The notes under the pieces: model-generated
Database searches by the model: none
What the model was told of the DNA's origin: nothing
What the model saw: the letters and a program-made list of their open reading frames with translations, nothing else
Position numbers and translations under genes: made by a program
Origin: Clostridiaceae bacterium
GTDB lineage: Bacteria > Bacillota > Clostridia > DSM-8532
Direction: 5' to 3'
Length of the DNA stretch: 47,632 nt
Assembly (NCBI GenBank): GCA_012521615.1
Contig: JAAYMA010000016.1
Coordinates: 1 to 47,632 of the forward strand
Shown: positions 3,551 through 37,927 of the stretch, piece after piece
How positions within the stretch are numbered: the stretch's first letter is position 1
Layout: each line of letters opens with the position of its first letter

Positions 3551-5176
3551 TTAATCGCATATGATAAGAATTCCATCGAGATTTTCTGAATGCCTTATAA
3601 TTTTTACCTCGTCTCCTTCTTTTAACAGTGAAGAAGAACCGACTTTTCCGCCCTTAAGAACTATTGCATTTACAGGTATTTCAATTTCAAGATCATCATG
3701 ACCGGACCACTGATCCTCATCCATATCGTATACCAGGACATTGCTAAGTTCCAATCCTGTCGGGTTCTCAATAATGATTCCGATGCTGTCATATGATCCA
3801 CCTGACAGACCTGTTATTCTTCCTGAAACCGGACTGTTTGCATAAGGCGCAGTGCTTATAAGTTCAATTTTAGATCCATTGGCCACAATATATACTGTCC
3901 GGCCTTTGTAATCATCCTTAAAGTCCCGCATACTTCCTATACCGTCTTCAGTAATTAATCTGGTTACAGTCAAATCAATATCGAATGTTTTAGGAGTATT
4001 GGTAAATTCCCATGTAACACCATTTAAGCGTGCAAAAGATTCTACGGTAATGTTCTCTTCAGGTTTAACACCGCTAATTCTTCCGCGATATATGGTAAGC
4101 CCCATATTGTTTAAGCTGTCGCAGGTAATAAGGTTCGCCAAAAAGCCGTTATTGTACCTTTCCATTGAGATTTTTACAGGATCAAGAATATTTAGTGCAG
4201 TTATGTCTACAAGCCTGCCATCCTTCACTACTATCAGATTCTCATCAAAAGCGACAGGCTCGGATAAATTCTGCAGGTAAAGATTGTTTGAAGAAACCCT
4301 TAACAAATTGTCTTTCATGACCATTTCAAACGGTGAATTCATGCGGTAGCTGGCAGCTACAATTCTTTCTGTGCCGTCCGGTGCCTGTTGTGTCGCAAAA
4401 TAGGAAATACCTGCGCCTCTCCTTGCCGGCCTTTCATTATATTCCTCACTGAACTTTATACTCTTAACACCAATAAAGGAAGAGTTTTTCCATTGACCAT
4501 TTACAAACTCCTGTAGATTGGAAACTATAAGTGCATCTCTGAAAGTATCAAAAAATTCAAATCTACCCCTGTAGATTCCTGTAACAAAACTCGGATTTTT
4601 CTCAATATCAATGCTGGCAATATGAATATTTGTACCATCAACCTGAACCAGAAGCTTTACTTTCTCTCCCGGTGAAATATTTGAGAAACTTTCAGATTTA
4701 CCGTTTCTGTAGACAGAAACCCCAACAGGTACAGAATAATATGCAAAAGTGCCGTCTTCTTTTTTTAAACTCAACCAGTTGACACCTTTATAATGAACAG
4801 TGCCGTAGACGGGTTTATAAAAACTTCTGGCACTGATTTTTTCTATATACCGGTCATTGTCAAGTCTGATAAACACCCTGTCGCCAGGCTGAATATTCTG
4901 TATCCCGACAATATATCCATCCCGTATAGCAGTTACATTAAACCCATAGGTAAATGTCCGAAAAGCTGTCAGATTCTCTGCAGAATCCGGAGCAGTACCC
5001 GAACCGTCTTCATAATAAAGCGTGATGTATCCAAGAGAATAGTTATTCTCTTTTACAATTCCTTCAACATGATATTCTTCCGAGGACGACCATTGAGCCC
5101 CTGCATGAATAGTACTGCATGTTATTGCTATAGCTGCAATAATGAGAATAAGGAAAATCTTTTTGGTAAGTTTCAA
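3551..5176 (-). CDS. Secreted protein of unknown function with five beta-barrel-like repeats
   Basis: The start is a TTG at 5176 with AGGAGG 8 nt upstream; the nearer ATG is out of frame. A signal peptide covers about residues 1-27, with likely cleavage after HAGA. I do not recognise the family. By eye the mature part has about five modules, opening near residues 36 (YHVEGIV), 123 (VYGTV), 198 (VTGIYRG), 362 (IYRGRI) and 449 (PVSGRI). They close with motifs such as QPGDRVFIRL, SPGEKVKLLV, YKGRTVYIV and KEGDEVKII. This pattern suggests repeated small beta-barrels of KOW or OB-like topology. It is the first gene of a probable operon with the SLH protein and the DUF5711 protein, which points to a cell-surface role. 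Confidence 0.7.
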   Translation of the reverse strand: MKLTKKIFLILIIAAIAITCSTIHAGAQWSSSEEYHVEGIVKENNYSLGYITLYYEDGSGTAPDSAENLTAFRTFTYGFNVTAIRDGYIVGIQNIQPGDRVFIRLDNDRYIEKISARSFYKPVYGTVHYKGVNWLSLKKEDGTFAYYSVPVGVSVYRNGKSESFSNISPGEKVKLLVQVDGTNIHIASIDIEKNPSFVTGIYRGRFEFFDTFRDALIVSNLQEFVNGQWKNSSFIGVKSIKFSEEYNERPARRGAGISYFATQQAPDGTERIVAASYRMNSPFEMVMKDNLLRVSSNNLYLQNLSEPVAFDENLIVVKDGRLVDITALNILDPVKISMERYNNGFLANLITCDSLNNMGLTIYRGRISGVKPEENITVESFARLNGVTWEFTNTPKTFDIDLTVTRLITEDGIGSMRDFKDDYKGRTVYIVANGSKIELISTAPYANSPVSGRITGLSGGSYDSIGIIIENPTGLELSNVLVYDMDEDQWSGHDDLEIEIPVNAIVLKGGKVGSSSLLKEGDEVKIIRHSENLDGILIICD

Positions 5177-7525: not shown

Positions 7526-9271
7526 ATGCCTTTTGATGGCATTTTGGTAAATAATATAGCAAAAGAATTCAATAAACTTCTTGCCGGAGGCAGGATAAGC
7601 AAAATCTATCAGATAAACAAGGATTCTGTTATTCTTCACATTCGGGCAAAGGGCGAGAATTTTGCTCTTTTTGCATCCTGCAACGCGCAGGCTGCCAGAA
7701 TTCATTTAACCGACAAGCAATTTGAATCCCCTGCTGCCCCCCCTGTATTCTGCATATTATTAAGGAAACATTTATTGGGTGGCATTATTAAAGGGTTTTT
7801 TACCAATGGTTTTGAGCGTATTATAACAATGGAAGTAGAAGCTGTTGATGAATTGGGCGACAAAGAAACAAAAAAGCTCGTATTCGAAATAATGGGCAAA
7901 CACAGTAACATTATACTTCTTAACAAAGATGACAAGATTATAGATGCTATAAAACATGTTGACTTTACCTTAAACAGGGTCCGTGAAATACTACCCGCAC
8001 GGGTTTATGTTCTCCCACCTTCCCAGGATAAATTAAATCCTGAGATGAATTCTACCTTTGAACTAATTTTAAATGAAGCGTCAACAAGCAGCCGAAAAAT
8101 CAGTTCATTTCTTTTGAGCCGATTGCAGGGTTTCTCGCCGGTATTATGCCGGGAAATATGCGTAAGGGCAGGCGTTGACGAAGATAAACCGGTATCAGGT
8201 TTAACCCGGGATGAGCTAAACCTGATCATCCGGGAAATACAAAAGCTTCTGGAGGATCTTGGTACAAAAGGCCCCAGACCATCGGTGGCTTTTGATTTTG
8301 ATGGTAAAAAGGCTGTAGATTTCCATTGCACCGCTCTGAACCAGTATAGCACCAATAAACACTACAATCGCATAAGCGATGCAGTGGATGCTTTTTATAC
8401 ATTGAAAAGCAACTGGTTATTTACTAACCAGCAGACGCAAAATCTACTTAAGTTTGTAGAAAAACTGCTTGATAAAAGTACAAAAAGACTTGAAATAAAC
8501 CTAAAAACATACGAGGAAAATAAAGACTATGATAAGCTCAGACTTTACGGAGAGCTGATTACAGCAAATATTTATTCTTTGAAAAAAGGAATGGACAAAG
8601 CAAACCTGGTCAACTATTACAGTGAAACCGGGGATATAATCGAGATCCCCCTTGATGAAAACAAAAGCCCGCAGGAAAACGCCCAATTATATTACAAAAA
8701 ATATAACAAGGCCAAAACTGCATTTTCTTATGCAGAAAAAGAAATTAAAAAGATCAAAGCTGAAATATCATATCTGGAAAGTGTGATGTTTGCCATAGAA
8801 GCTGCCCAAAAACCTGAGCAGATTAACGAGATACGCCTGGAACTATATGAGCAGGGATATTTGAGCCAACTTCACAATAAAAAGTCCCGAAAAAATGAAA
8901 AAATCAGATCTGTACACATCGCCCCTTTAAAAGTAATTTCAGGTGATGGTTTTGAAATTTTGATCGGGCAGAATAACAAGCAAAACGATAAACTTACAAT
9001 GAAGATAGCCCGAAGTGACGATATATGGCTTCATATAAAGAACTTCACCGGCTCCCATGTTGTAATCAGAACGGAAGGTAAAGATGTACCTGAGTCAACA
9101 CTACTTGAAGCAGCCGGGTATGCGGCATGGTTCAGCAAAGCCCGCTTTGCACCAAAGGCTGAAGTTGACTATACTTTTGTAAAGCATGTAAAAAAGCCCT
9201 CGGGTGCAAAACCGGGAATGGTAGTTTACACGAACTACAAAACAATCCTGACCGAACCCAGAGAGCCTTAG
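7526..9271 (+). CDS. rqcH: Ribosome quality control factor RqcH (NFACT/FbpA family)
   Basis: The protein has 581 residues, the normal length for bacterial NFACT proteins. It has an N-terminal NFACT-N domain starting MPFDGILVNNIAKEFNKLL with GGRISKIYQ, a helical helix-hairpin-helix and coiled-coil middle (about 200-430, rich in Lys/Glu), and a C-terminal NFACT-R domain. The latter has the signature DDIWLHIKNFTGSHVVIRT and ends with VDYTFVKHVKKPSGAKPGMV. RqcH binds obstructed 50S subunits carrying peptidyl-tRNA and directs addition of C-terminal alanine tails that mark stalled chains for proteolysis. Older annotations call it fibronectin-binding protein. GAGGTG precedes the ATG. It converges on mtaD with only 4 bp between the genes. 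Confidence 0.9.
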   Translation: MPFDGILVNNIAKEFNKLLAGGRISKIYQINKDSVILHIRAKGENFALFASCNAQAARIHLTDKQFESPAAPPVFCILLRKHLLGGIIKGFFTNGFERIITMEVEAVDELGDKETKKLVFEIMGKHSNIILLNKDDKIIDAIKHVDFTLNRVREILPARVYVLPPSQDKLNPEMNSTFELILNEASTSSRKISSFLLSRLQGFSPVLCREICVRAGVDEDKPVSGLTRDELNLIIREIQKLLEDLGTKGPRPSVAFDFDGKKAVDFHCTALNQYSTNKHYNRISDAVDAFYTLKSNWLFTNQQTQNLLKFVEKLLDKSTKRLEINLKTYEENKDYDKLRLYGELITANIYSLKKGMDKANLVNYYSETGDIIEIPLDENKSPQENAQLYYKKYNKAKTAFSYAEKEIKKIKAEISYLESVMFAIEAAQKPEQINEIRLELYEQGYLSQLHNKKSRKNEKIRSVHIAPLKVISGDGFEILIGQNNKQNDKLTMKIARSDDIWLHIKNFTGSHVVIRTEGKDVPESTLLEAAGYAAWFSKARFAPKAEVDYTFVKHVKKPSGAKPGMVVYTNYKTILTEPREP

Positions 9272-9275
9272 AATA

Positions 9276-10575
9276 TCAGTTAAAAATGCGTTCACATATT
9301 TTCTGAATATGGTGCTGAACCTTTTCTCTATCTATTGTTTTAAAATCACCGTTTTCGTAAAGTATCCGGCCGTTTACCATAGTAAGACAAACGTCTGACC
9401 CCCTGGGCGCAATAGGCGAGAGCCGAAACAGGATTATGAAGAGGCAGAAAATGGGGTTTATCCAGATCAATCAGGATCAAATCAGCCTTCTTACCCGGAG
9501 CAACTTCCCCCAAATCATCCCGACCAAGGGCTTTGCTTCCATTGACAGTTGCCATTCTGATGGCCTCTTTGGCGCTAACCAAAAGAGGATCCTGCTTCGC
9601 ACCTTTTTGAATTAATGCTGCCAGGCTTATCTCTTCAAACATACTTAAATTGTTATTGCTGGCCACTCCATCGGTACCAAGGATTACGTTTACTCCTTTA
9701 CTGAGAGCTTCGGGTATAGGAGCTATTCCACTGGCAAGCTTCAAATTGCTTTTTGGGTTGTGAGCTATTGTAACATTCTTTTCTTTTAAAAGAGAAATAT
9801 CCTCATCTGTAATCCATACACAATGTGCAGCAATTGTCTTCAGATCAAATAATCCCAAATCATACAAATGCTTTGTCGGTGTCTTGTTGTAATCCTTTAA
9901 TGAATTCTCATGCTCGGTCAGTGTTTCATCCAAATGGACATGAATGGGTGCTCCCAGTTTTTCTGCAGCATCGCGTACAGCCTTGATGAATTCAGGGGAA
10001 CAGGTATATATTGCATGGGGCGCAAAAGCTCCGGTGATTCTTCCATTTGCTTCTCCGTTCCAGTTTTTGAAGAAACTTATGCTTTCGTTCAGGCTTTCAA
10101 CTTTTGAGAAATCAGGTCCTTTTTCATTGCAGGTCATGCCTCTTGATAAGTGGGCTCTTATACCTGACATTTCAACAGCCCGTGCAATATCATCCATAAA
10201 AAAATACATGTCAATAAAGCATGTAGTGCCTGTTGCAAGCATTTCCATAATGCCCAGAAGTGAGCTGAAAAACACATCTTCACCTGTAAGCCTTTCTTCT
10301 ACTGGAAAAATGTACTTAAACAGCCAGGTCTGAAGCTCCATATCATCTGCATAATTCCGTAAAATTGACATAGGCACATGGGTATGTCCGTTAATAAAGC
10401 CCGGCATTAACAGTTTGCCAGTGCAATCTATTGCCCGGGCTTTATCCCGGTCTTCGGGCCCAATGTTTCCTACACATTTTATACAATCATTTTCTACAAG
10501 CACATCACAGTCATCCAGAATTTCCATTTGGCTGTTCATGGTTAATACCTTGGCATTTTTAAACAGATATTTCAT
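9276..10575 (-). pseudogene. mtaD: 5-methylthioadenosine/S-adenosylhomocysteine deaminase, frameshifted near the C-terminus
   Basis: An amidohydrolase that deaminates S-adenosylhomocysteine or methylthioadenosine. The metal-site pattern is intact: GHTH in PGFINGHTHVPMS, HVHLDET, AAHCVW and LGTDGVAS. The continuous frame from the ATG at 10575 ends at 9346 (409 residues) with a tail, VRRLSYYGKRPD, that does not fit the family. In the next frame the expected continuation SDVCLTMVNGRILYENGD runs to a stop at 9276. The switch falls in a run of five C on the plus strand (9399-9403); with four, the protein would be 432 residues, normal for the family. The cause may be a sequencing or assembly error, or a real mutation. 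All catalytic residues lie before the shift. Confidence 0.85.
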
Positions 10576-18928: not shown

Positions 18929-21730
18929 TTAAAAAATTTGGACATCAGTTTTTTTAGCCACATAAACTTGCACTATTTCAGGCTCAATCATATAACCGCG
19001 CCTGTATCCGCTCTGCAGTTCATCGTAGAATCCCGGACATTCAAGAATAATCGAAATCACATTTTCACTATTCTTATTCAGGTAGGACTCCGGAATATAG
19101 AAATCCTGCTGCGGGCCAAGTACATCATACAGGGCAATCGGTTTTCCATTTACATATATAGTAAGTCTTTGATCTGCCTCTTCTATCCTTAAACGAATCG
19201 GAGCGCTAAATCCCTCTCCAATATCATATTTGAATTTCCTTCTGAACCAGACTATATGCCCCATCTCTGGTGCGGGTACATATTTTTGAACTGCCGGACA
19301 TTCATGCCAGTCAGAATCATCAAATTCCAGCTTATGATAGCCTTTATTGATTCCTTCAAGCCCCTGTTTTACATAGAATTCTTTTAAAGACAGTTTGAAC
19401 TTCTTATCGTCGCTATATGTACCATATAACTCAATAGGATTCATTATTCCACTGAATTTCACTATATCTCCCTCGTGAGGATGGGATTTGTTATGAAACT
19501 CATTGGCATAAAGGATAGCCATTATATTTTTACCCTTTTTCAAAGCCGATGTTATATCCATTTGCTTTATCTTTCTGTTATGGCTTTTATACACAAGTTT
19601 ATTATTTATATAGATAAACATCCGGTCAGTATCATTATGTTGATAATCCATGAATACCATGCCCGGATCCTTTTTAAGATCAAATTCTGTCCTGTACCAG
19701 TAGTACCCGTGTTCTATGTATCCGGCTTCCTCAAGGGATATAGGTTTGAGAAGTCTTTCCCAGCCTGAATGATTATAATTGTCTGAAACTTCCGCTGTAT
19801 CAGCAATATACTTCCAATCAGAAGTCCATTTAAATTCAGGTCTGTCAAGATATGATCCGACCCGGAAACCTCCTTCATACATACCGGTTTTATCACAATA
19901 GTTCAGAGCCACAATACCGCCGTTTACAGCTAGACAATCCGGCTTGAATGTTTCAGTCATAGGGAAAAATCTAAATCTGTTTTCACTGTTCTCTTTGATT
20001 TCCGTGCTGAGTTTGATCTTACTGTCTTCTTCAGCAATTGATTCGATATAGTATGTTGAATGGAACAATAATCCAGAATCAAGCTCTTCAACTCTTCCCA
20101 CAAGACTGTTCTCTATTATAAACATATATATATCGTTGATCTTAATTATATTGACATCATCGTGGCAATATTTGAGCATGCTTTCATCGCCAAAGTCCAA
20201 CACTTCCACATTTCCTTTAATTACTTTTATGTCCTGAGCCTTGCAATTTATGACAAGCTGTCCGGCTACACCTTTTTTGCCATAAAGCGCGAAAACAATA
20301 CCCTTTTCGTATTTCCGGGAGAAAAGCACTTCACTGGTTGCATATCTGATAAACGCATCGGTGCCGGGTATGGAAAAGTTAACGGGAATTAATCTTGTTT
20401 CCCCTGCCAGTACTTTTGTACTGAAGGTATATTCTTTACCTGCTAACTCTTCCGGAATGTGTAAAACAAAATTCTTATCATCTTTTTCAAGATTCCTTAT
20501 CTTAAAGAACCGTCCATTTTCATTTCCCTGCTCATAAAAATCACAGTTTTCATCAGACTGGCTAAGGTCACTGTCTATCATTGCACCATCTTGCTTCAAA
20601 ACTGCGATATTGTCTCCGGCAGATAATACTTTGACATAGGATTTGTCATCGCCGTTGAGCATAATATCAGAAAACTCTTTTGCAAACCGCATAAAGCCTT
20701 TTATCCAATAATATTTTTCTTTGTGAAGCTCGCCCCATTCACGTATGGGGGAACCGCCAAAATCATAGCTCGTTATATTACCAAGCCCGCCTAAAAAGAA
20801 TATATCTCCTCTTGCCCCGATGTAGGGGAATGTGGTGCCTCCCACCATCATGTAATAATTCATAACTGAAGCACCGTGTATCAGCACACTTTTGGATACA
20901 CCTTCTACTACACTGAGATCAGGCTCGTAAATGGGAGCACCAATCTGGGCGAACCATCCTGCCTGAAGTTCCAGTATCATGACCGGATACTGTGACTGGG
21001 TCTTTCTTGATTCAATAATTTTCCCTTCATAAAGGTCGTATTCATTCATCCACAGTCCCGGAATACAGGGATAATATGTACGGGTATCAATTATGCCTTC
21101 ACTGCGAAGGAAAGTTGCTTCATTGGCGAACTTAGGAATATCAATTCCAAGTTCGTCCATTGTATCCCGCAAGAACAGGAAATAATCTATGGCATCCTGG
21201 AGAGTGATTGTTTCATCCCCATATTCTATCAGGTGATCATATTCATTCTCAATCTGAATGGCTATTATATTCCCGCCATTTGTTACAAGATGCTTCTGTA
21301 TCTTTTCGTTAACCATCTCATACCAGCGTCTGCACAGCTTAAGGTAGCCTTCATCCAGCATACGGAGCCTGAATTCTTTCCTGGCTATTTTCCCTATCAG
21401 CCAATCGGGATGACCGCCAAAATCCAGTTCAGCACAAACATAAGGACCAGGTTTTATGAGAACATAAAACCCATACTTTTCACATAGCGTGAGAAACCTG
21501 TCAAGATCGTAATCTCCGTCCCATCTGACCTGGTTTTCTACAGGTTCATGCATACTCCACGGAACATATACTGAAATAAGGTTTGCACCCATACTTTTCA
21601 TTTTCTTCAGCCGGTCTTCCCAGAGAGCTGCAGGAACTCTGAAATAGTGGAATTCTCCACCAATCAGAAATTCCCTTCTGCCATTAATGATAAACCCGTT
21701 TCTGTCATAGGAAATGATGTGTTTTTTCAT
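18929..21730 (-). CDS. Glycoside hydrolase family 35 beta-galactosidase-like enzyme
   Basis: A 933-residue protein without a signal peptide, so cytoplasmic. The N-terminal TIM barrel has the GH35 landmarks GEFHYFRVP (near residue 25), KPGPYVCAELDFGG, the acid/base Glu163 in QIENEYD and the probable nucleophile Glu254 in MILELQAGWF. The C-terminal half holds beta-sandwich jelly-roll domains, including WFRRKFKYDIG and RLTIYVNGKPIALYD. GH35 enzymes remove terminal beta-galactose, and some act on glucosamine or other beta-linked sugars. The substrate here is not certain. It is 27 bp downstream of the glycoside phosphorylase gene and clearly co-transcribed with it, suggesting a joint role in degrading an imported beta-linked oligosaccharide. 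Confidence 0.85.
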   Translation of the reverse strand: MKKHIISYDRNGFIINGRREFLIGGEFHYFRVPAALWEDRLKKMKSMGANLISVYVPWSMHEPVENQVRWDGDYDLDRFLTLCEKYGFYVLIKPGPYVCAELDFGGHPDWLIGKIARKEFRLRMLDEGYLKLCRRWYEMVNEKIQKHLVTNGGNIIAIQIENEYDHLIEYGDETITLQDAIDYFLFLRDTMDELGIDIPKFANEATFLRSEGIIDTRTYYPCIPGLWMNEYDLYEGKIIESRKTQSQYPVMILELQAGWFAQIGAPIYEPDLSVVEGVSKSVLIHGASVMNYYMMVGGTTFPYIGARGDIFFLGGLGNITSYDFGGSPIREWGELHKEKYYWIKGFMRFAKEFSDIMLNGDDKSYVKVLSAGDNIAVLKQDGAMIDSDLSQSDENCDFYEQGNENGRFFKIRNLEKDDKNFVLHIPEELAGKEYTFSTKVLAGETRLIPVNFSIPGTDAFIRYATSEVLFSRKYEKGIVFALYGKKGVAGQLVINCKAQDIKVIKGNVEVLDFGDESMLKYCHDDVNIIKINDIYMFIIENSLVGRVEELDSGLLFHSTYYIESIAEEDSKIKLSTEIKENSENRFRFFPMTETFKPDCLAVNGGIVALNYCDKTGMYEGGFRVGSYLDRPEFKWTSDWKYIADTAEVSDNYNHSGWERLLKPISLEEAGYIEHGYYWYRTEFDLKKDPGMVFMDYQHNDTDRMFIYINNKLVYKSHNRKIKQMDITSALKKGKNIMAILYANEFHNKSHPHEGDIVKFSGIMNPIELYGTYSDDKKFKLSLKEFYVKQGLEGINKGYHKLEFDDSDWHECPAVQKYVPAPEMGHIVWFRRKFKYDIGEGFSAPIRLRIEEADQRLTIYVNGKPIALYDVLGPQQDFYIPESYLNKNSENVISIILECPGFYDELQSGYRRGYMIEPEIVQVYVAKKTDVQIF

Positions 21731-21757: not shown

Positions 21758-24700
21758 TTATGCAAGGTAAATATCCAGCCGGTCTATTTTGCCTTCTCTT
21801 ATTTCCCTGGAATAAGGCAAAGCAATAACTCCGCCTTCTATATTTATTAACTGACCGTCTTTGTGTATTACAATCCTTTCTATCTTGGCAGCATCTTTAC
21901 CGTAAGTATCCTTTCTGTTTGGATTGTGATAAACTGTAAGCACATTTCCTAAAAACATGAAAGCAAAAGTATCCTTTTCAAAAACAATTTCCCTGGACTC
22001 CATATTTTCATAAAGTGTTGCACGGGTTTCTTCCTCTGTGAAAAGCCAATTCGGAATAACAGGTTTAAGCTCAAGACAAAGTTGGCCTTCATCATTTATG
22101 AAGAAGGGTTTTCTGCCAACTGTCATATAAATCCACATGGTCAGGAATTCTGCCGATGCTCCTGACAGTCTGGAGACAAATCCCCTGCCATGGACTCTTT
22201 TGTCAGGATGCACTGTACTTGCTATAAAGGATGAGTTTTCCAGAATACTTCTGCCATAAACTTCAGGATCCAAAAACGGTATCGTTTTCATAAAACATTC
22301 AGAGAAAAACTCATCATAAAGGCCGGATCTTAAAATTTCAAGGAAATATTTGTATTCCATATGCAGGAACACTGCTTCATTTTCGAGCCAGCCTCTCGGG
22401 AATATATTCTGCCTCCCTATTTCCTTTGTTTCATCCATAATATTGTCATTGACTTTGTACATGTCCAGTTTTTTATCATACAGACCAGTCTTTTTTATTG
22501 CACCGAACAGCTTTTTGGCTTTATCAGCGTCTTTCTCCATTCTGAGCACATGGACAGGTCCTTCAAGGAAATAAGGAATGGGTCTCTGCCTGAATTTAAG
22601 TGCTTTTACATACGGATAGCCATTTGCATCCCTTAACTCCTGCCCGTTTTCATCTTTTAGAATTTCATACTCTGTAACTTCATTGATAAAGTATGTATAA
22701 TAAACTCCCTCGTCCTTGTTTAATGCCTTTTCAATAGCTTTATCAACTTTATTCACCAATTTGTCCAGGAATGTAACTATTTCTTTGATATCAATCTCGG
22801 CTTCATTGCCGCTTATGCCAAATATAACTTCCTGGCGATATTTTTCTTTAATCTCATAACTCTTTTTCCAATACTCAAAATCATCAGTTATATCTGATAA
22901 CAGATTGTTTATGGTACTGAAGAATCTGTATCCTTCCTCGTAAACTTTTATAGATCCACTTAAACCTGCTTTTTCAACAGCATCCTTGACAATTAATGCA
23001 AGTCTTTTAATAGCCGCAGTTTCATTAATTGATGAACCCAATATGGCAGGCAATCCGTTTAATGCATCACACCAGCCTGGTTTGTTGGCTTCCATCTCGA
23101 CACCAATGCCCTCAGGATCCAAAGAAGCGATTTTGTTTACAAGAAGCATTACGATTTTGGAAAGGAGTGTACAATGGTAAATATCTCCCTTACCGTTTTC
23201 TGTACGCACCATGTTGGGATGGGTTTCCCTGCTTTTTATAAGTTCTTCTTTCTCTCTTATTCTTATCACTGAACCAAGCTGTCGTACTCCATTAGGGGTA
23301 AGTACATATTTCTTCTCCCTTGGCATAACCACTTCATAGTTATCGTAATAGGTATAGCTGCAATCTTTTACAAGCAGATCTTCAATTCTGTCAGGGTATA
23401 TTGAGAAATACTGTTCCAGCAAATCATTGTTATATATCCAGTGATCTACCCAGTATCCTTCCTGAAAATCAGCCAGATCCTCCTTGGAGCTTATAGCAAG
23501 GACTTTATCCAAAAGTTCGGCATAACTGCCTTTCAAGAGTTCAACTTTTTTGTATTCCATGAATTCCAGGAAACTACCGGGAGTAAAGGCTTTACCCAGA
23601 TAATCCTTAATTTCCGTTCTATGATCGGGCTTCACATATTCGTCCAGAAGCAGATCCAATCTTTGGCTGTCTTCAATATAGAATCTTGATCCTTTAAGGA
23701 CGAGAGGATTAAATCCGTCCAACTGTATGAGATTGAAGAAAGTCTTTATATCGGTATCATTAATTTCGGGGAAGAATACAATGTCGTTTCTTCTGTTCTG
23801 GTTTACATCACGGAAATTCGCATTCCCCTGCGAATAATATGTTGAATCGACCTGGAAGAAATTGTACTCTCTTTCCAGATCTCCATGTTTTCTTGAATAA
23901 ACATAGAAGGTATGTTTGCCCTCTCCAACCTGTACAGGATACCCGCCTCTCAGGAAATTATCGAGAAAACTCTGTCCTGCATACAAATCAAACTTTTTGG
24001 AATTGCTTACAGTAAACACAGGATTTTTGAGGCTCTCGATCAGATTGCGATTTTCTTCAATTTTATCGATAATATAAGTTTCGCTTATTTTAGATACGGC
24101 AAATTCTTTGACCATATCAAAATTACCTGCACTGCCTATAAGAGTATAAGAAACATGGGAATCCCTATTCTCGAGAACAAGGCTTCTGTATCCGAAACCA
24201 CAGGGTGTTGTTCCTACTGTTACCTGTTCTTCCGGGAATTCAAATTCTTTTTCTATGAATTTTTCCGGATAAGCAAAATCATATTTTTCACCAAATACTT
24301 CATAAGGGTCCACAATAATAGGTGCGTAATATGTTTCTCCATTTTCGAAGCTTACATTTATGTAGAAATTTCCGCCTTCCAGGAATAAAGTTTCCGGAGT
24401 ATCATAAGGAAGAACCTTAATTCTGTAGAACGGTATGGTTCTATAATTATCAACACCCATCCATGCCTGCCTTAAGTTACTCATTTCTTTCATGTCTATA
24501 TTTGTGAGATAATAGGGGATTATGGCAGGAAGTCCGTCAATAATCTCAATCTCATATTTTTTGCCTGAGATATTGGTTACCTTTAAGCTTCTTATAAGAC
24601 TTGCAATATTTTCACCGGGAAGAGTACAGTACATTACTTCTGTTTTAATACCAAGTTTTTCGTTAACTTCTTCTATTCTTACATCGTAAGATGTTATAAT

Positions 24701-25048
24701 CATTTTTTGGGTTATATCTTCATCCCTGTCACTTAGATTATCCTGAAAAGGTTCATGATATATCACTTTTTGACTTTCCAGATCTTTTATCTTAAAAAAT
24801 GTTCTGAAACCCTGAAGAGCTGTCTGCCTGTATGCCTTGTTCGCCGGTTGAAATTCCAAAATTGAATAATCCTTATTGTTTATACCGAAGGTTGAAATTA
24901 GCTGTCCTCTGTTTACATAATAAGTCCACAAAGGTTTTCCGTGAAGACCGGCTATAGCGGGCAAAAAACTTGCAAAAGGTTTGCATCGGTTATAATCCTC
25001 AATAACAAATTCGCCTTGGGAATTAAGATAATATTTTTGTTTTTTCAT
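21758..25048 (-). CDS. Glycoside phosphorylase of the GH94/GH149/GH161 group (possibly GH161 beta-1,3-glucan phosphorylase)
   Basis: This 1096-residue cytoplasmic protein resembles cellobiose phosphorylase-like proteins but is longer than true GH94 cellobiose phosphorylases (about 810). An N-terminal beta-sandwich region (1-350) precedes a linker and an (alpha/alpha)6 barrel. Key segments are GYWVDHW (531-537), KPGWCDALNGLP with the probable catalytic Asp661, FRQRPIPYFLEGPV and IFPRGWLENEAVFLHMEYKY. Such enzymes cleave beta-glucosidic bonds with phosphate to give glucose 1-phosphate, saving ATP. The size and motif spacing point to GH161 or GH149 (beta-1,3-glucan phosphorylases), but this is from memory. 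It is the first gene of an operon with GH35. TGGAGG precedes the ATG. Confidence 0.7.
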   Translation of the reverse strand: MKKQKYYLNSQGEFVIEDYNRCKPFASFLPAIAGLHGKPLWTYYVNRGQLISTFGINNKDYSILEFQPANKAYRQTALQGFRTFFKIKDLESQKVIYHEPFQDNLSDRDEDITQKMIITSYDVRIEEVNEKLGIKTEVMYCTLPGENIASLIRSLKVTNISGKKYEIEIIDGLPAIIPYYLTNIDMKEMSNLRQAWMGVDNYRTIPFYRIKVLPYDTPETLFLEGGNFYINVSFENGETYYAPIIVDPYEVFGEKYDFAYPEKFIEKEFEFPEEQVTVGTTPCGFGYRSLVLENRDSHVSYTLIGSAGNFDMVKEFAVSKISETYIIDKIEENRNLIESLKNPVFTVSNSKKFDLYAGQSFLDNFLRGGYPVQVGEGKHTFYVYSRKHGDLEREYNFFQVDSTYYSQGNANFRDVNQNRRNDIVFFPEINDTDIKTFFNLIQLDGFNPLVLKGSRFYIEDSQRLDLLLDEYVKPDHRTEIKDYLGKAFTPGSFLEFMEYKKVELLKGSYAELLDKVLAISSKEDLADFQEGYWVDHWIYNNDLLEQYFSIYPDRIEDLLVKDCSYTYYDNYEVVMPREKKYVLTPNGVRQLGSVIRIREKEELIKSRETHPNMVRTENGKGDIYHCTLLSKIVMLLVNKIASLDPEGIGVEMEANKPGWCDALNGLPAILGSSINETAAIKRLALIVKDAVEKAGLSGSIKVYEEGYRFFSTINNLLSDITDDFEYWKKSYEIKEKYRQEVIFGISGNEAEIDIKEIVTFLDKLVNKVDKAIEKALNKDEGVYYTYFINEVTEYEILKDENGQELRDANGYPYVKALKFRQRPIPYFLEGPVHVLRMEKDADKAKKLFGAIKKTGLYDKKLDMYKVNDNIMDETKEIGRQNIFPRGWLENEAVFLHMEYKYFLEILRSGLYDEFFSECFMKTIPFLDPEVYGRSILENSSFIASTVHPDKRVHGRGFVSRLSGASAEFLTMWIYMTVGRKPFFINDEGQLCLELKPVIPNWLFTEEETRATLYENMESREIVFEKDTFAFMFLGNVLTVYHNPNRKDTYGKDAAKIERIVIHKDGQLINIEGGVIALPYSREIREGKIDRLDIYLA

Positions 25049-30996: not shown

Positions 30997-31605
30997 CTAT
31001 ACTTTAAGTATTGGAGATACCTTTTTATATGTAATAAAAGTTAAGAGTGAAATTATAACCACCTTTATAGCATTGAAAGGGATTACTCCAAACAAAATGA
31101 GTGTTTTCAAATCAATAATACCACTGTTTTTCTGAGCGCTTGTCTGTACAATGCTTTGCAGTGATTTATCGAAAGTAGTGCCGAACTGTTCTGCAAAAAT
31201 CTTAACATATAGCGGAATAAGAACCAAGTAGTTCATAAAGGCAGCGACAACCACCATACTGATTGAACCTGCAATCAACCCGATTATTGCTGTTTTTATA
31301 TTCTTGTTTCTACTATAAATTATAGCAGCGGGAACAACGTAGGCACAACCGACTATAAAGTTTGCCAGTTCACCAATACCGCCGGTTATTGTAAATGCTA
31401 CATGTACCAGATTTTTGACAAGTTCGATTAGAACACCTGCCAGGGGCCCCAGTGCAAAAGCTCCAAGCATAACAATAAGTTCACTTAAATCAAGCTTCAG
31501 AAATGGCGGCATAAAAGGGATTGGTGTTTCGATAAACATTATGACTGTCGCTAAGGCAGAAAGAATTGCAACCTTTGCAATATACCTGGTCTTTGTGTTT
31601 TCCAT
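30997..31605 (-). CDS. ribU: Riboflavin transporter RibU (ECF transporter S component)
   Basis: A 202-residue membrane protein with about six helices. It has the RibU-type segment KLDLSELIVMLGAFALGPLAGVLIELVKNLVH, where the substrate-binding residues of the family lie. As an S component it would bind riboflavin and use the shared EcfAA'T energising module, which is not in this window. The assignment is supported independently by the FMN riboswitch and its terminator immediately upstream. The start is the ATG at 31605, preceded by TTGGAGGGAG. Confidence 0.9.
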   Translation of the reverse strand: MENTKTRYIAKVAILSALATVIMFIETPIPFMPPFLKLDLSELIVMLGAFALGPLAGVLIELVKNLVHVAFTITGGIGELANFIVGCAYVVPAAIIYSRNKNIKTAIIGLIAGSISMVVVAAFMNYLVLIPLYVKIFAEQFGTTFDKSLQSIVQTSAQKNSGIIDLKTLILFGVIPFNAIKVVIISLLTFITYKKVSPILKV

Positions 31606-31688: not shown

Positions 31689-31711
31689 AAATGGACACAA
31701 AAAAAGCACTA

Positions 31712-31831
31712 TCTTCTCCCATCCAGACTATACTGTCGGCTCCGGAATCTCACCGGATCAGCTAAAAAGCTCGCGGGCTAATGGCAAAAGCCACATCACC
31801 GCCGGTCGGGAATTTCACCCTGCCCTGAAGA
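31712..31831 (-). ncRNA. FMN riboswitch (RFN element)
   Basis: The conserved RFN blocks are all present in order on the minus strand: TTCAGGGCAGGGTGAAATTC, CCCGACCGGCGGT, then AGCCCGCGAGC, GATCCGGTGAGATTCCGGAG, CCGACAGT and GTCTGGATGGGAGAAGA. The aptamer binds FMN. The downstream terminator and ribU show that it shuts off riboflavin uptake when FMN is plentiful. Confidence 0.97.
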
Positions 31832-31994
31832 TTTTTACAATATTAAATTTTAACTTAATTATAGGTACATCTGCTGCTGTTGTCAATATCCATAATATGT
31901 TATAAACGACCCGAAAATGCCTGAAATTTATCTGTGATATTTTTTCTGTGTCGCATTGAGTTTTAAGTCCTTCGGGCCGGGGAAATGAAAAAAC

Positions 31995-33550: not shown

Positions 33551-34858
33551 CTATAATGCCACTGCCCTCACTCTTCCGTTTTCAATATTATCCAATCTGA
33601 CATTTATTATTTCTCCCACATTCTCACTGTCAAACTCGACAATTACAGGGATATAGTTAGGTGTGTGACCTTCCAGGTCATTACAGCCCTCAGCAACCGG
33701 CTGCTCCAGCAAAACCGGCATCTCGCGTCCTATGAACTTTGTCATGACATCCTTTTGCATTGCTTCGGCCAGATTTATCATAACTCTGCTTCTTTCCTCC
33801 TTTATTTTACCATCTACCTGATGTGGATATCTGGCTGCAGGAGTACCTTTTCTGGGCGAATATTTAAATACATGCATTCTTAAAAAGCCCATTTCCTTAC
33901 AGAATTCATATGACTGTTGAAACTCCTCATCTGTCTCGCCGGGAAAGCCCACCATAACGTCGGTGGTAATTGTTACATCCTCAACCTTTTCTTTAAGCAT
34001 ATTGACAATATTTCTGTAATCCTGAGTTGTATATCTCCGGTTCATCCTTTTTAAAGTACTGTCACAACCGCTCTGTAGGGATATATGAAAATGAGGACAT
34101 AATTTGGGCAGATTTTTAATATGGTCTATAAAATCAGAGGTCAGAAACATGGGCTCAAGTGAACCCAGGCGAATTCTTTCGATTCCTTCAACATTATGCA
34201 GCTCTTCTATAAGCTGAGCCAGACCCACACCTTCTTTCTTTCCGTAAGATGTCAGGTGTATGCCGGTTAATACTACCTCCCCAAATCCCCTTGCTACCAA
34301 ATTTTTTGCTTCCCTCAGAACGTCGTCCATTTTTCTGCTTCTTACAGGTCCTCTGGCATATGGAATTATGCAGTAGGAACAAAACTGGTCGCAGCCATCC
34401 TGCACTTTTATAAATGCTCTGGTATGATCTTCATAGGTTTCAATCGGAAGTTCTTCAAATTCACAAAGTGCTCGTCTTTCATGAACATATTTTTGCTGTT
34501 TTGCTGAAACCTTATTCTTTTCTACAAGCTCAACAATGTTGTGCTTTAAATTATTTCCGACCACCAGATTTACACCCTCGATTTTTGCGGCTTCATCAGG
34601 TGAAACCTGAGCAAAACAGCCAACTGCTGCAATAACTGCATTGGGGTTTAGTTTATGAGCCTTCCGCAGCATTTGTCTGGATTTTCTGTCGCCCGTATTG
34701 GTCACTGTACAAGTATTAACTATATAAACGTCAGCATATTCGTTTTCGCTTACAATTTCATAACCTGCATCCCTGAAAAGCTTTTTCATTCCTTCAGTTT
34801 CAGCCGTATTTACTTTACAACCCAGTGTAATAAACGCAACTTTTTTTGTATTCTCCAT
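33551..34858 (-). CDS. mtaB: tRNA t6A37 methylthiotransferase MtaB
   Basis: The start is the ATG at 34858, after GAAGTGAGG; a GTG three codons upstream is possible. The protein of about 435 residues is a radical SAM methylthiotransferase that converts t6A37 to ms2t6A in tRNAs reading ANN codons. The N-terminal MTTase domain has the cluster cysteines in TLGCKVN, NTCTVTN and VGCFAQ. The radical SAM motif is CDQFCSYCIIPYARG. A C-terminal TRAM domain binds the tRNA. It is 150 bp upstream of ireB on the same strand and divergent from the HPr-like gene. Confidence 0.93.
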   Translation of the reverse strand: MENTKKVAFITLGCKVNTAETEGMKKLFRDAGYEIVSENEYADVYIVNTCTVTNTGDRKSRQMLRKAHKLNPNAVIAAVGCFAQVSPDEAAKIEGVNLVVGNNLKHNIVELVEKNKVSAKQQKYVHERRALCEFEELPIETYEDHTRAFIKVQDGCDQFCSYCIIPYARGPVRSRKMDDVLREAKNLVARGFGEVVLTGIHLTSYGKKEGVGLAQLIEELHNVEGIERIRLGSLEPMFLTSDFIDHIKNLPKLCPHFHISLQSGCDSTLKRMNRRYTTQDYRNIVNMLKEKVEDVTITTDVMVGFPGETDEEFQQSYEFCKEMGFLRMHVFKYSPRKGTPAARYPHQVDGKIKEERSRVMINLAEAMQKDVMTKFIGREMPVLLEQPVAEGCNDLEGHTPNYIPVIVEFDSENVGEIINVRLDNIENGRVRAVAL

Positions 34859-34915
34859 TAGCCTCACTTCCCAAAAGTCACAATAATTACAGTTAAACTC
34901 TTTGCACTTTGCTTA

Positions 34916-35623: not shown

Positions 35624-35707
35624 GTGCACAAATATATGGATTCAGATTTTAAATTCTTCCAATTTAAAATCATTACAATGTTATTTATAAAATATCAGGG
35701 GGTAAAA

Positions 35708-37927
35708 ATGAGAGATAAATTTATAAATGGTAAATGGAACACAGAAATCGATGTACGAGATTTCATACAAAAAAATTATACTCCTTATGACGGTGATGAA
35801 AGTTTTCTGACTTCTCCGACTGAGAAAACAGTTCAGTTATGGAACAAAGTCAAAAATCTGATGGAAGAAGAGCGGAAAAATGGCGGCGTTCTGGACATAG
35901 ACACCCGCACCATTTCCACTATCACTTCCCATAAACCCGGTTATATCGATAAGGAGCTTGAAGAAATAGTAGGACTTCAGACCGATGAACCGTTAAAAAG
36001 GGCAATAATGCCTTTTGGCGGTATCAGAATGGTAAGAAGTGCATTAAAAGCATATGACAGGGAGATGGATCCCGAAGTAGAGAATGTATTTAAGTACAGA
36101 AAAACTCACAACGATGGTGTATTTGATGCATATACCACAGAAATGAGAAAGGCAAGACATACAGGAATAATCACCGGACTTCCCGATGCCTATGGAAGAG
36201 GAAGAATAATTGGGGATTACAGAAGAGTTCCTCTTTACGGTGTTGATTTCCTGATTGAGAAAAAGAAAGAAGCTAAAGAAAATTATGTTTTCGATATTAT
36301 GGATTCAGCTGTTATAAGACAGCGGGAAGAGCTCAGTGAACAGATAAAGGCTCTTGAAGAATTGAAAGAAATGGCAGCAAGCTATGGCTTTGATATAGGA
36401 AGACCTGCTACTGACACAAAGGAAGCTATACAATGGCTGTATTTTGCCTACCTTGCTGCAGTAAAGGAACAAAACGGAGCAGCAATGAGCCTTGGCAGAG
36501 TTTCTACTTTCCTTGATATTTATGCAGAAAAGGATTTGGATTCCGGCAGATATACAGAAGAACAAATTCAGGAATTTGTAGATCACTTTGTTATGAAGCT
36601 CAGAATAGTGAGATTTTTAAGGACACCAGCATATGATGCACTGTTTTCAGGGGACCCGACCTGGATTACAGAAGCCCTTGCAGGAATAGGTCTTGACGGC
36701 AGACACATGGTTACAAAGATGTCCTTTAGATTTCTGCATACGCTCACCAATCTCGGACCGGCACCTGAACCTAATATGACAGTATTATGGTCTCCCAGAC
36801 TTCCTGAGAATTTCAAGAAATTCTGTGCAAGACTTTCTGTGGAAACTTCCTCAATTCAATATGAGAATGATGAACTTATGAGGGAAAAATTCGGAGATGA
36901 CTATGGAATTGCCTGCTGTGTATCGGCCATGAGAATTGGAAAACAGATGCAGTTCTTCGGAGCAAGGGCAAACCTTGCCAAAGCCCTTCTGTATGCAATA
37001 AATGGCGGAAAGGATGAAATATCCGGCGAACAGGTCGGGCCTATGTTGGCACCAATTACTTCCGATTACCTTGATTATGATGAGGTAATGGAAAGATTTG
37101 ATAAAACTCTGGACTGGCTTGCAAAATTATATATCAATACACTGAATATTATTCACTATATGCATGATAAATACTGCTATGAAAGAATTGAAATGGCTTT
37201 GCATGATGAGGAAATATTAAGGACAATGGCCTGTGGAATTGCAGGTCTTTCGGTAGTGGCAGATTCACTGTCAGCAATAAAATATGCGAAAGTCAAACCT
37301 GTAAGAAACGAAGATGGACTTATTGTAAACTACGAAGCAGAAGGCGATTTCCCCAAATTCGGTAATAACGATCCGAGAGTAGACGAAATAGCAACAGAAC
37401 TTGTAAGAAACTTTATGTCCAAATTAAGCAAGCATAAAACATACAGAAACAGCAAACCTACCATGTCCATACTGACCATAACCTCCAATGTTGTATACGG
37501 AAAGAAAACCGGAGACACCCCTGACGGAAGAAAGAAAGGTGAACCCTTTGCACCCGGCGCAAACCCGATGCACAAGAGAGACACCAAGGGATGCATTGCT
37601 TCCATGGCTTCAGTTGCAAAACTGCCTTATGACTGCAGTGAAGACGGAATATCCTATACATTTTCCATTGTCCCACATGCTTTGGGCAAAACAGAAAAAG
37701 AACAGACAGAAAACCTTGCCGGACTGCTGGATGGATATTTCAACGAAGGCGGTCACCATATAAACGTGAATGTATTGAACAAGGAAGTGCTTCTGGACGC
37801 CATGGATCACCCCGAAAAATATCCTCAGCTTACTATCAGAGTATCGGGATATGCTGTTAACTTCATTAAGCTTACAAGAGAACAGCAGTTGGATGTAATA
37901 AACAGAACATTCCACGAGAGATTCTAA
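35708..37927 (+). CDS. pflB: Pyruvate formate-lyase
   Basis: The start chosen is the ATG at 35708, after CAGGGGGT; it gives [10 protein letters not shown] and a 739-residue protein, normal for the family. It is a glycyl-radical enzyme converting pyruvate and CoA to formate and acetyl-CoA. The adjacent catalytic cysteines are Cys403-Cys404 in [12 protein letters not shown], and the radical-bearing glycine is Gly714 in RVSGYAV near the C-terminus. Activation needs the PflA encoded 34 bp downstream. The enzyme is destroyed by oxygen, consistent with a strict anaerobe. Its 480-bp upstream region holds the Rex-like and palindromic sites. Confidence 0.97.

What the first reader, a model, noticed from the sequence alone, without database searches (positions are those of the whole stretch)
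9276..10575. mtaD interrupted by one extra base in a G/C homopolymer
The family's C-terminal segment (SDVCLTMVNGRI and onward) continues perfectly in the next frame after a run of five C at 9399-9403. Every catalytic residue is upstream. Either this is a sequencing or assembly error, a phase-variable tract, or a recent loss of about 23 family residues replaced by an unrelated tail.
Basis: seen in the sequence. Interest (0 to 1): 0.5.

Follow-up and report, generated by a model that had tools for sequence, protein, structure and literature searches.

The report
One-base frame break in mtaD gene
A common housekeeping enzyme gene in a draft genome related to Clostridiaceae has its reading frame broken near the end by a single-base length difference, most likely an uncorrected sequence error or a very recent mutation, so it is ordinary.

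Summary
The minus-strand ORF 9346-10575 (409 aa) is an amidohydrolase of the MTA/SAH/5'-deoxyadenosine deaminase group. It leaves the family frame inside a five-G run (C5 on +, 9399-9403), and the family C-terminus (40 residues) continues in the +1 frame to a stop at 9276-9278. In the 29 best relatives' loci (12 of the same genus) this end is in frame; a 13th congener's fragment agrees. One correction: 40 family residues are lost and 17 foreign ones gained; 23 is only the net. The catalytic residues are upstream, but the lost part corresponds to two strands and the C-terminal helix in the model of an intact relative. The out-of-frame tail is as conserved as in intact congeners, so the break is very recent or not real. 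It is the only frame break found in 83 kb of homolog-covered DNA of this genome, and the only copy detected. The run is short; one congener has a five-G run there in frame, eleven have two or three G. No stimulatory RNA structure is seen, so a switch is unlikely. Best reading: uncorrected or non-representative base count (0.63), otherwise a recent loss-of-function mutation (0.3). Raw reads would decide.

The parts
9346..10575 (-). mtaD-like amidohydrolase ORF as it stands, 409 aa; residues 1-392 are family sequence, 393-409 unrelated
9399..9403 (-). run of five G (C on +) where the family frame is left
9349..9399 (-). 17 unrelated residues VRRLSYYGKRPDTLRKR; predicted with pLDDT under 50
9279..9398 (-). 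40 codons of the conserved family C-terminus, out of frame with the ORF, followed by the family stop at 9276-9278
7526..9271 (+). convergent neighbour, RqcH/EfbA-family protein; ends 4 bases from the family stop of mtaD

Best explanation
The gene is an ordinary MtaD-type deaminase, and in the organism it is most likely intact. The one-base frame break in the five-G run is most likely a consensus error of the draft assembly, or a minority variant that got into the consensus. Shown here: the frame break, its position, intactness of the relatives examined, conservation of the out-of-frame tail, a single detected copy. Inferred: that the base count at the run is wrong or non-representative. If the break is read literally, the 409-aa protein keeps its metal site but lacks two strands and the C-terminal helix of the small beta domain, and would probably be poorly folded (inference).
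For: 29 of 29 relatives' loci L003-L031 (12 same genus, 16 same family, 1 same class) run through the junction in one frame and end 39-41 residues after it; the thirteenth congener's fragment ends in frame too. First-and-second-position divergence of the tail relative to the body is 0.89 in this genome, against 0.80-1.36 in the 12 congeners; simulated free drift of 0.1 substitutions per site would give a mean of 1.23, 5th percentile 1.01. It is the only frame break found among 83,268 homolog-covered bases of 285,582 sampled from this genome. It is the only copy found in the genome, while ahcY and a purine nucleoside phosphorylase are present elsewhere and LuxS is found in 0 of 14 genus genomes, so a loss would be expected to cost. 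The genome is a 133-contig draft.
Against: No reads and no second genome of the species were available, so the base count itself is untested. The low rate of breaks elsewhere argues that this assembly is good: in the checked part of the window, 16 other G/C runs of 5 or more, and 219 runs of 5 or more of any base, show no break. A real, recent pseudogene would look the same.
Confidence: 0.63

Rival explanations
1. A real, very recent loss-of-function mutation: slippage in the five-G run shifted the frame, and the strain makes a truncated, probably unstable deaminase.
For: The sequence as given. In the model of an intact relative (L032) the part that corresponds to the lost one holds strands 395-400 and 403-407 and helix 416-431, with block pLDDT 96-98 and 83 at the very end, while the foreign tail is below 50. 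Two columns in the lost part, D394 and G402 of L032, are invariant in 26 intact proteins. No other break was found in the sampled DNA, so a generally sloppy assembly is not the explanation.
Against: Sole detected copy of a gene found in 14 of 14 genus genomes (in G005 as a fragment at a contig end); no sign of relaxation in the out-of-frame tail.
Confidence: 0.3
2. A functional switch: the run is phase-variable, or a +1 frameshift site that makes both a 409-aa and a full-length protein.
For: A GGG codon followed by G could in principle let a glycine tRNA re-pair one base on (general knowledge, not tested). The downstream frame is open to the family stop. One congener, G004, has a five-G run at the same place, though there the gene is in frame.
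Against: The run has only 5 bases; a Campylobacter jejuni survey counts polyG/polyC loci from seven repeats up (PMC4965091, start of abstract seen in the listing). Eleven of 12 congeners have only 2 or 3 G there and all 12 are in frame. Folding of the 91 nt around the site is no better than shuffles (z 0.39). The codon after GGG in the ORF frame is GTC, not a stop; codon speed was not tested.
Confidence: 0.07

Closest known systems
MTA/SAH deaminase (MtaD; Thermotoga maritima TM0936, PDB 1j6p/1p1m/2plm) and the related 5'-deoxyadenosine deaminase DadD
   Same: Sequence match of TM0936 to residues 48-392 (E about 5e-78); the intact congener's model matches 1j6p with TM-score 0.96 by target length; the conserved metal and catalytic columns are present.
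   Different: The window copy lacks the last 40 family residues and has 17 unrelated ones instead.
Ordinary homopolymer frame breaks in draft genomes (error or recent pseudogene)
   Same: One-base length difference in a short G/C run, downstream frame still conserved, relatives intact.
   Different: No difference found.
Homopolymeric-tract phase variation (Campylobacter, Neisseria)
   Same: The break is in a G/C run inside a reading frame.
   Different: The run is shorter than the tracts counted in such a survey (listing), is mostly not conserved in congeners, and the gene is a metabolic enzyme.

Membership tests
MTA/SAH/5'-deoxyadenosine deaminase (amidohydrolase superfamily) | Amidohydrolase domain | tested here: met
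   PF01979 268.4 bits, cut-off 25; solved deaminases matched
MTA/SAH/5'-deoxyadenosine deaminase (amidohydrolase superfamily) | Metal and catalytic residues (H64, H66, H214, E217, H251, D302; roles recalled, not computed) | tested here: met
   All six columns invariant in 27 sequences including the window copy (26 of the 59 loci were aligned)
MTA/SAH/5'-deoxyadenosine deaminase (amidohydrolase superfamily) | Complete C-terminal strands and helix of the small beta domain | tested here: not met
   Frame left after residue 392; present in 29 of 29 relatives' loci and in the model of L032
MTA/SAH/5'-deoxyadenosine deaminase (amidohydrolase superfamily) | NCBIfam curated cut-off of an equivalog model | tested here: not met
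   Best NF004701 450.1 bits against 609; NF012037 (MTA/SAH deaminase) 275.1 against 779. The intact congener L032 also fails (498.2 and 310.3), so the break is not the reason and the exact substrate stays inferred
MTA/SAH/5'-deoxyadenosine deaminase (amidohydrolase superfamily) | Deaminates MTA, SAH or 5'-deoxyadenosine | not testable with these tools
   Needs an enzyme assay
Phase-variable homopolymeric tract | Long tract whose length varies between cells or strains | tested here: inconclusive
   Length only 5, and 11 of 12 congeners have 2 or 3 G there, which speaks against it; variation within the species could not be examined
Programmed +1 frameshift | Frame break and slip site conserved, with a stimulator | tested here: not met
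   29 of 29 relatives' loci are in frame; no structure above shuffles in 91 nt around the site

The most novel reading that the evidence does not exclude
The five-G run lets some ribosomes or some cells switch frames, so the organism makes a mixture of truncated and full-length deaminase and so tunes its turnover of SAH, MTA and 5'-deoxyadenosine.
Probability: 0.03. Interest if true: 0.5.

Novelty: already known. Interest (0 to 1): 0.08.

Why it matters
Little in itself. It is a warning for annotation: a pipeline that takes the base count at face value would call this gene truncated or a pseudogene, and so score this genome as lacking its only detected MTA/SAH-type deaminase. If the break were real, it would be a fresh loss in an S-adenosyl-compound salvage step whose gene was found in all 14 genomes of the genus that were searched.

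Tried and rejected
Second copy of the gene elsewhere in the genome: none found (DNA search; protein search). Close relative on a plasmid: 969 of 72,556 plasmid records matched, all below 60% identity, best listed 45.1%. Old degeneration of the C-terminus: rejected because the out-of-frame tail shows no excess change and no internal stop in 40 codons. Poor assembly in general: one break in 83,268 checked bases. The same scan gave one event in each of two control genomes. The G010 one rests on a window reading frame that lies antisense to an ECF-transporter ORF and an FMN riboswitch and matched no other locus held, so I take it as spurious; the G013 one (identity falling from 90% to 46%) was not resolved. 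Stimulatory RNA structure: none above shuffles. Promoter-like and terminator-like matches around the gene were at chance level (5 against a mean of 4.0, 1 against 1.4). Paper searches gave background only; I read passages of two papers. Before the report was accepted I recounted and corrected a draft statement that congeners have no such run: one of 12, G004, has five G there, in frame.

Full report
What is there. On the minus strand, 10575-9346, lies an ORF of 409 codons. It matches the amidohydrolase family PF01979 at 268 bits and, among solved proteins, T. maritima TM0936 best (E about 5e-78). TM0936 was shown to deaminate adenosine, MTA and SAH (passages read in PMC4372640; PMC10978960, passages, describes it as an MTA/SAH deaminase and homologue of DadD). 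NCBIfam equivalog cut-offs are not reached, either by the window copy or by the intact congener L032, so 'mtaD' is a fair name by similarity while the precise substrate is inferred.

The break. The + strand reads CCCCC at 9399-9403. Family sequence runs to residue 392 and then stops matching. Another frame reads on as RGSDVCLTMVNGRILYENGDFKTIDREKVQHHIQKICERIFN and stops at 9276-9278. Homologous ORFs of five congeners, the five whose long stretches around the gene were fetched, each align in two abutting pieces, frames -2 and -3, meeting at 9400-9404.

Relatives. In the search of 61 genomes, 54 had a match, including all 14 of the genus. The 29 best loci other than the window (L003-L031: 12 of the genus, 16 of the family, 1 of the class) all run through the junction in one frame and end 39-41 residues after it; the congeners' proteins are 430-432 aa long. 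The thirteenth congener, G005, has the gene cut by a contig start; its fragment also ends in frame. Of the 59 loci, which include the genus loci L032-L036 again, none has fewer than 30 codons open after the end of its alignment; three (L079, L080, L084) align only to query residue 376 or 355, so the junction itself is not aligned there, and L067, a Metamycoplasma, has an in-frame stop near its start under table 11, as expected if TGA is a residue there (recalled). At the junction the longest G run is 2 or 3 in 11 of the 12 congeners and 5 in G004, where the gene is in frame; of the other 17 loci one, L019, has 4. A five-G run here is thus not by itself diagnostic, and it is not conserved either.

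How recent. I kept body (391 codons) and out-of-frame tail (40 codons) as separate pieces, left out the codon at the junction, and compared first and second codon positions with the 12 congeners. Tail divergence over body divergence is 0.89 here and 0.80-1.36 in the others. Simulated unconstrained drift of the tail raises the ratio to 1.06 (5th percentile 0.91) at 0.05 and to 1.23 (5th percentile 1.01) at 0.1 substitutions per site. The break is therefore very recent on the scale of this genus, or absent from the organism. The simulation starts from the present tail and uses equal rates, so it is a rough bound.

Background rate. Of 285,582 bases of this genome (the window and 20 stretches), 83,268 are covered by homologous ORFs of the congener stretches held; this frame break is the only one found. 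The same scan gave one event in 121,234 covered bases of G010 (taken as spurious: antisense to an ECF-transporter ORF) and one, unresolved, in 87,983 of G013. The window has 27 G/C runs of five or more. In its 29,340 checked bases lie 16 such runs besides the one at issue, and 219 runs of five or more of any base, none with a break. The assembly is thus not riddled with frame breaks, which fits one stray consensus error as well as one real mutation.

Consequences if real. The conserved metal and catalytic columns (H64, H66, H214, E217, H251, D302; roles recalled) are all upstream and invariant in 27 sequences. The model of the intact congener L032 has strands 395-400 and 403-407 and helix 416-431 in the part that corresponds to the lost one, with block pLDDT 96-98 and 83 at the very end, and D394 and G402 are invariant in 26 intact proteins. 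The model of the window ORF is good to residue 392 and below 50 after it. A structure predictor does not test stability, so 'poorly folded' is inference. The genome has no second detected copy. It has ahcY next to an inosine/guanosine-type purine nucleoside phosphorylase. That is its only PNP_UDP_1 match, so no separate MTA/SAH nucleosidase (a member of that Pfam family, recalled) was seen. LuxS was found in 0 of 14 genus genomes and mtnA in 3 of 14, not this one. A deaminase feeding ahcY and the phosphorylase is thus the likely route, and its loss would be expected to cost; this step is inference.

Mechanistic alternatives. Phase variation and programmed frameshifting are disfavoured by the short, mostly unconserved run, the in-frame genes of relatives and the lack of RNA structure (z 0.39). 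Neither is excluded, because no reads, no sister strain and no protein data were available.

Verdict. Observation confirmed; ordinary. Most likely an uncorrected or non-representative base count in a conserved housekeeping gene (0.63), next a true very recent loss (0.3), last a functional switch (0.07). The recount changed facts about the run in congeners but not these odds.

Noticed in passing
window 31707-31836 (-), upstream of 30997-31605 (-): FMN riboswitch (RF00050, 125.6 bits) in front of an ECF transporter substrate-specific component (PF12822), presumably a riboflavin transporter.
   Followed up: no
window 21758-25048 (-) and 3551-5176 (-): ORFs of 1096 and 541 aa with no Pfam match at 1e-8; the first lies 27 bases upstream of a GH35 beta-galactosidase ORF on the same strand (18929-21730).
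   Followed up: no
window 33551-34867 (-) and 35624-37927 (+): A radical SAM enzyme with a UPF0004 domain (MiaB type, recalled) and a pyruvate formate-lyase-like glycyl radical enzyme; the activators of the latter make 5'-deoxyadenosine (recalled), a substrate of the MtaD relative DadD.
   Followed up: no
G000:C63 12309-14470 (L104): ahcY beside a purine nucleoside phosphorylase; the two lie on one contig within a few kb in 11 of the 13 congeners (not in G005 and G009), read by eye.
   Followed up: partly
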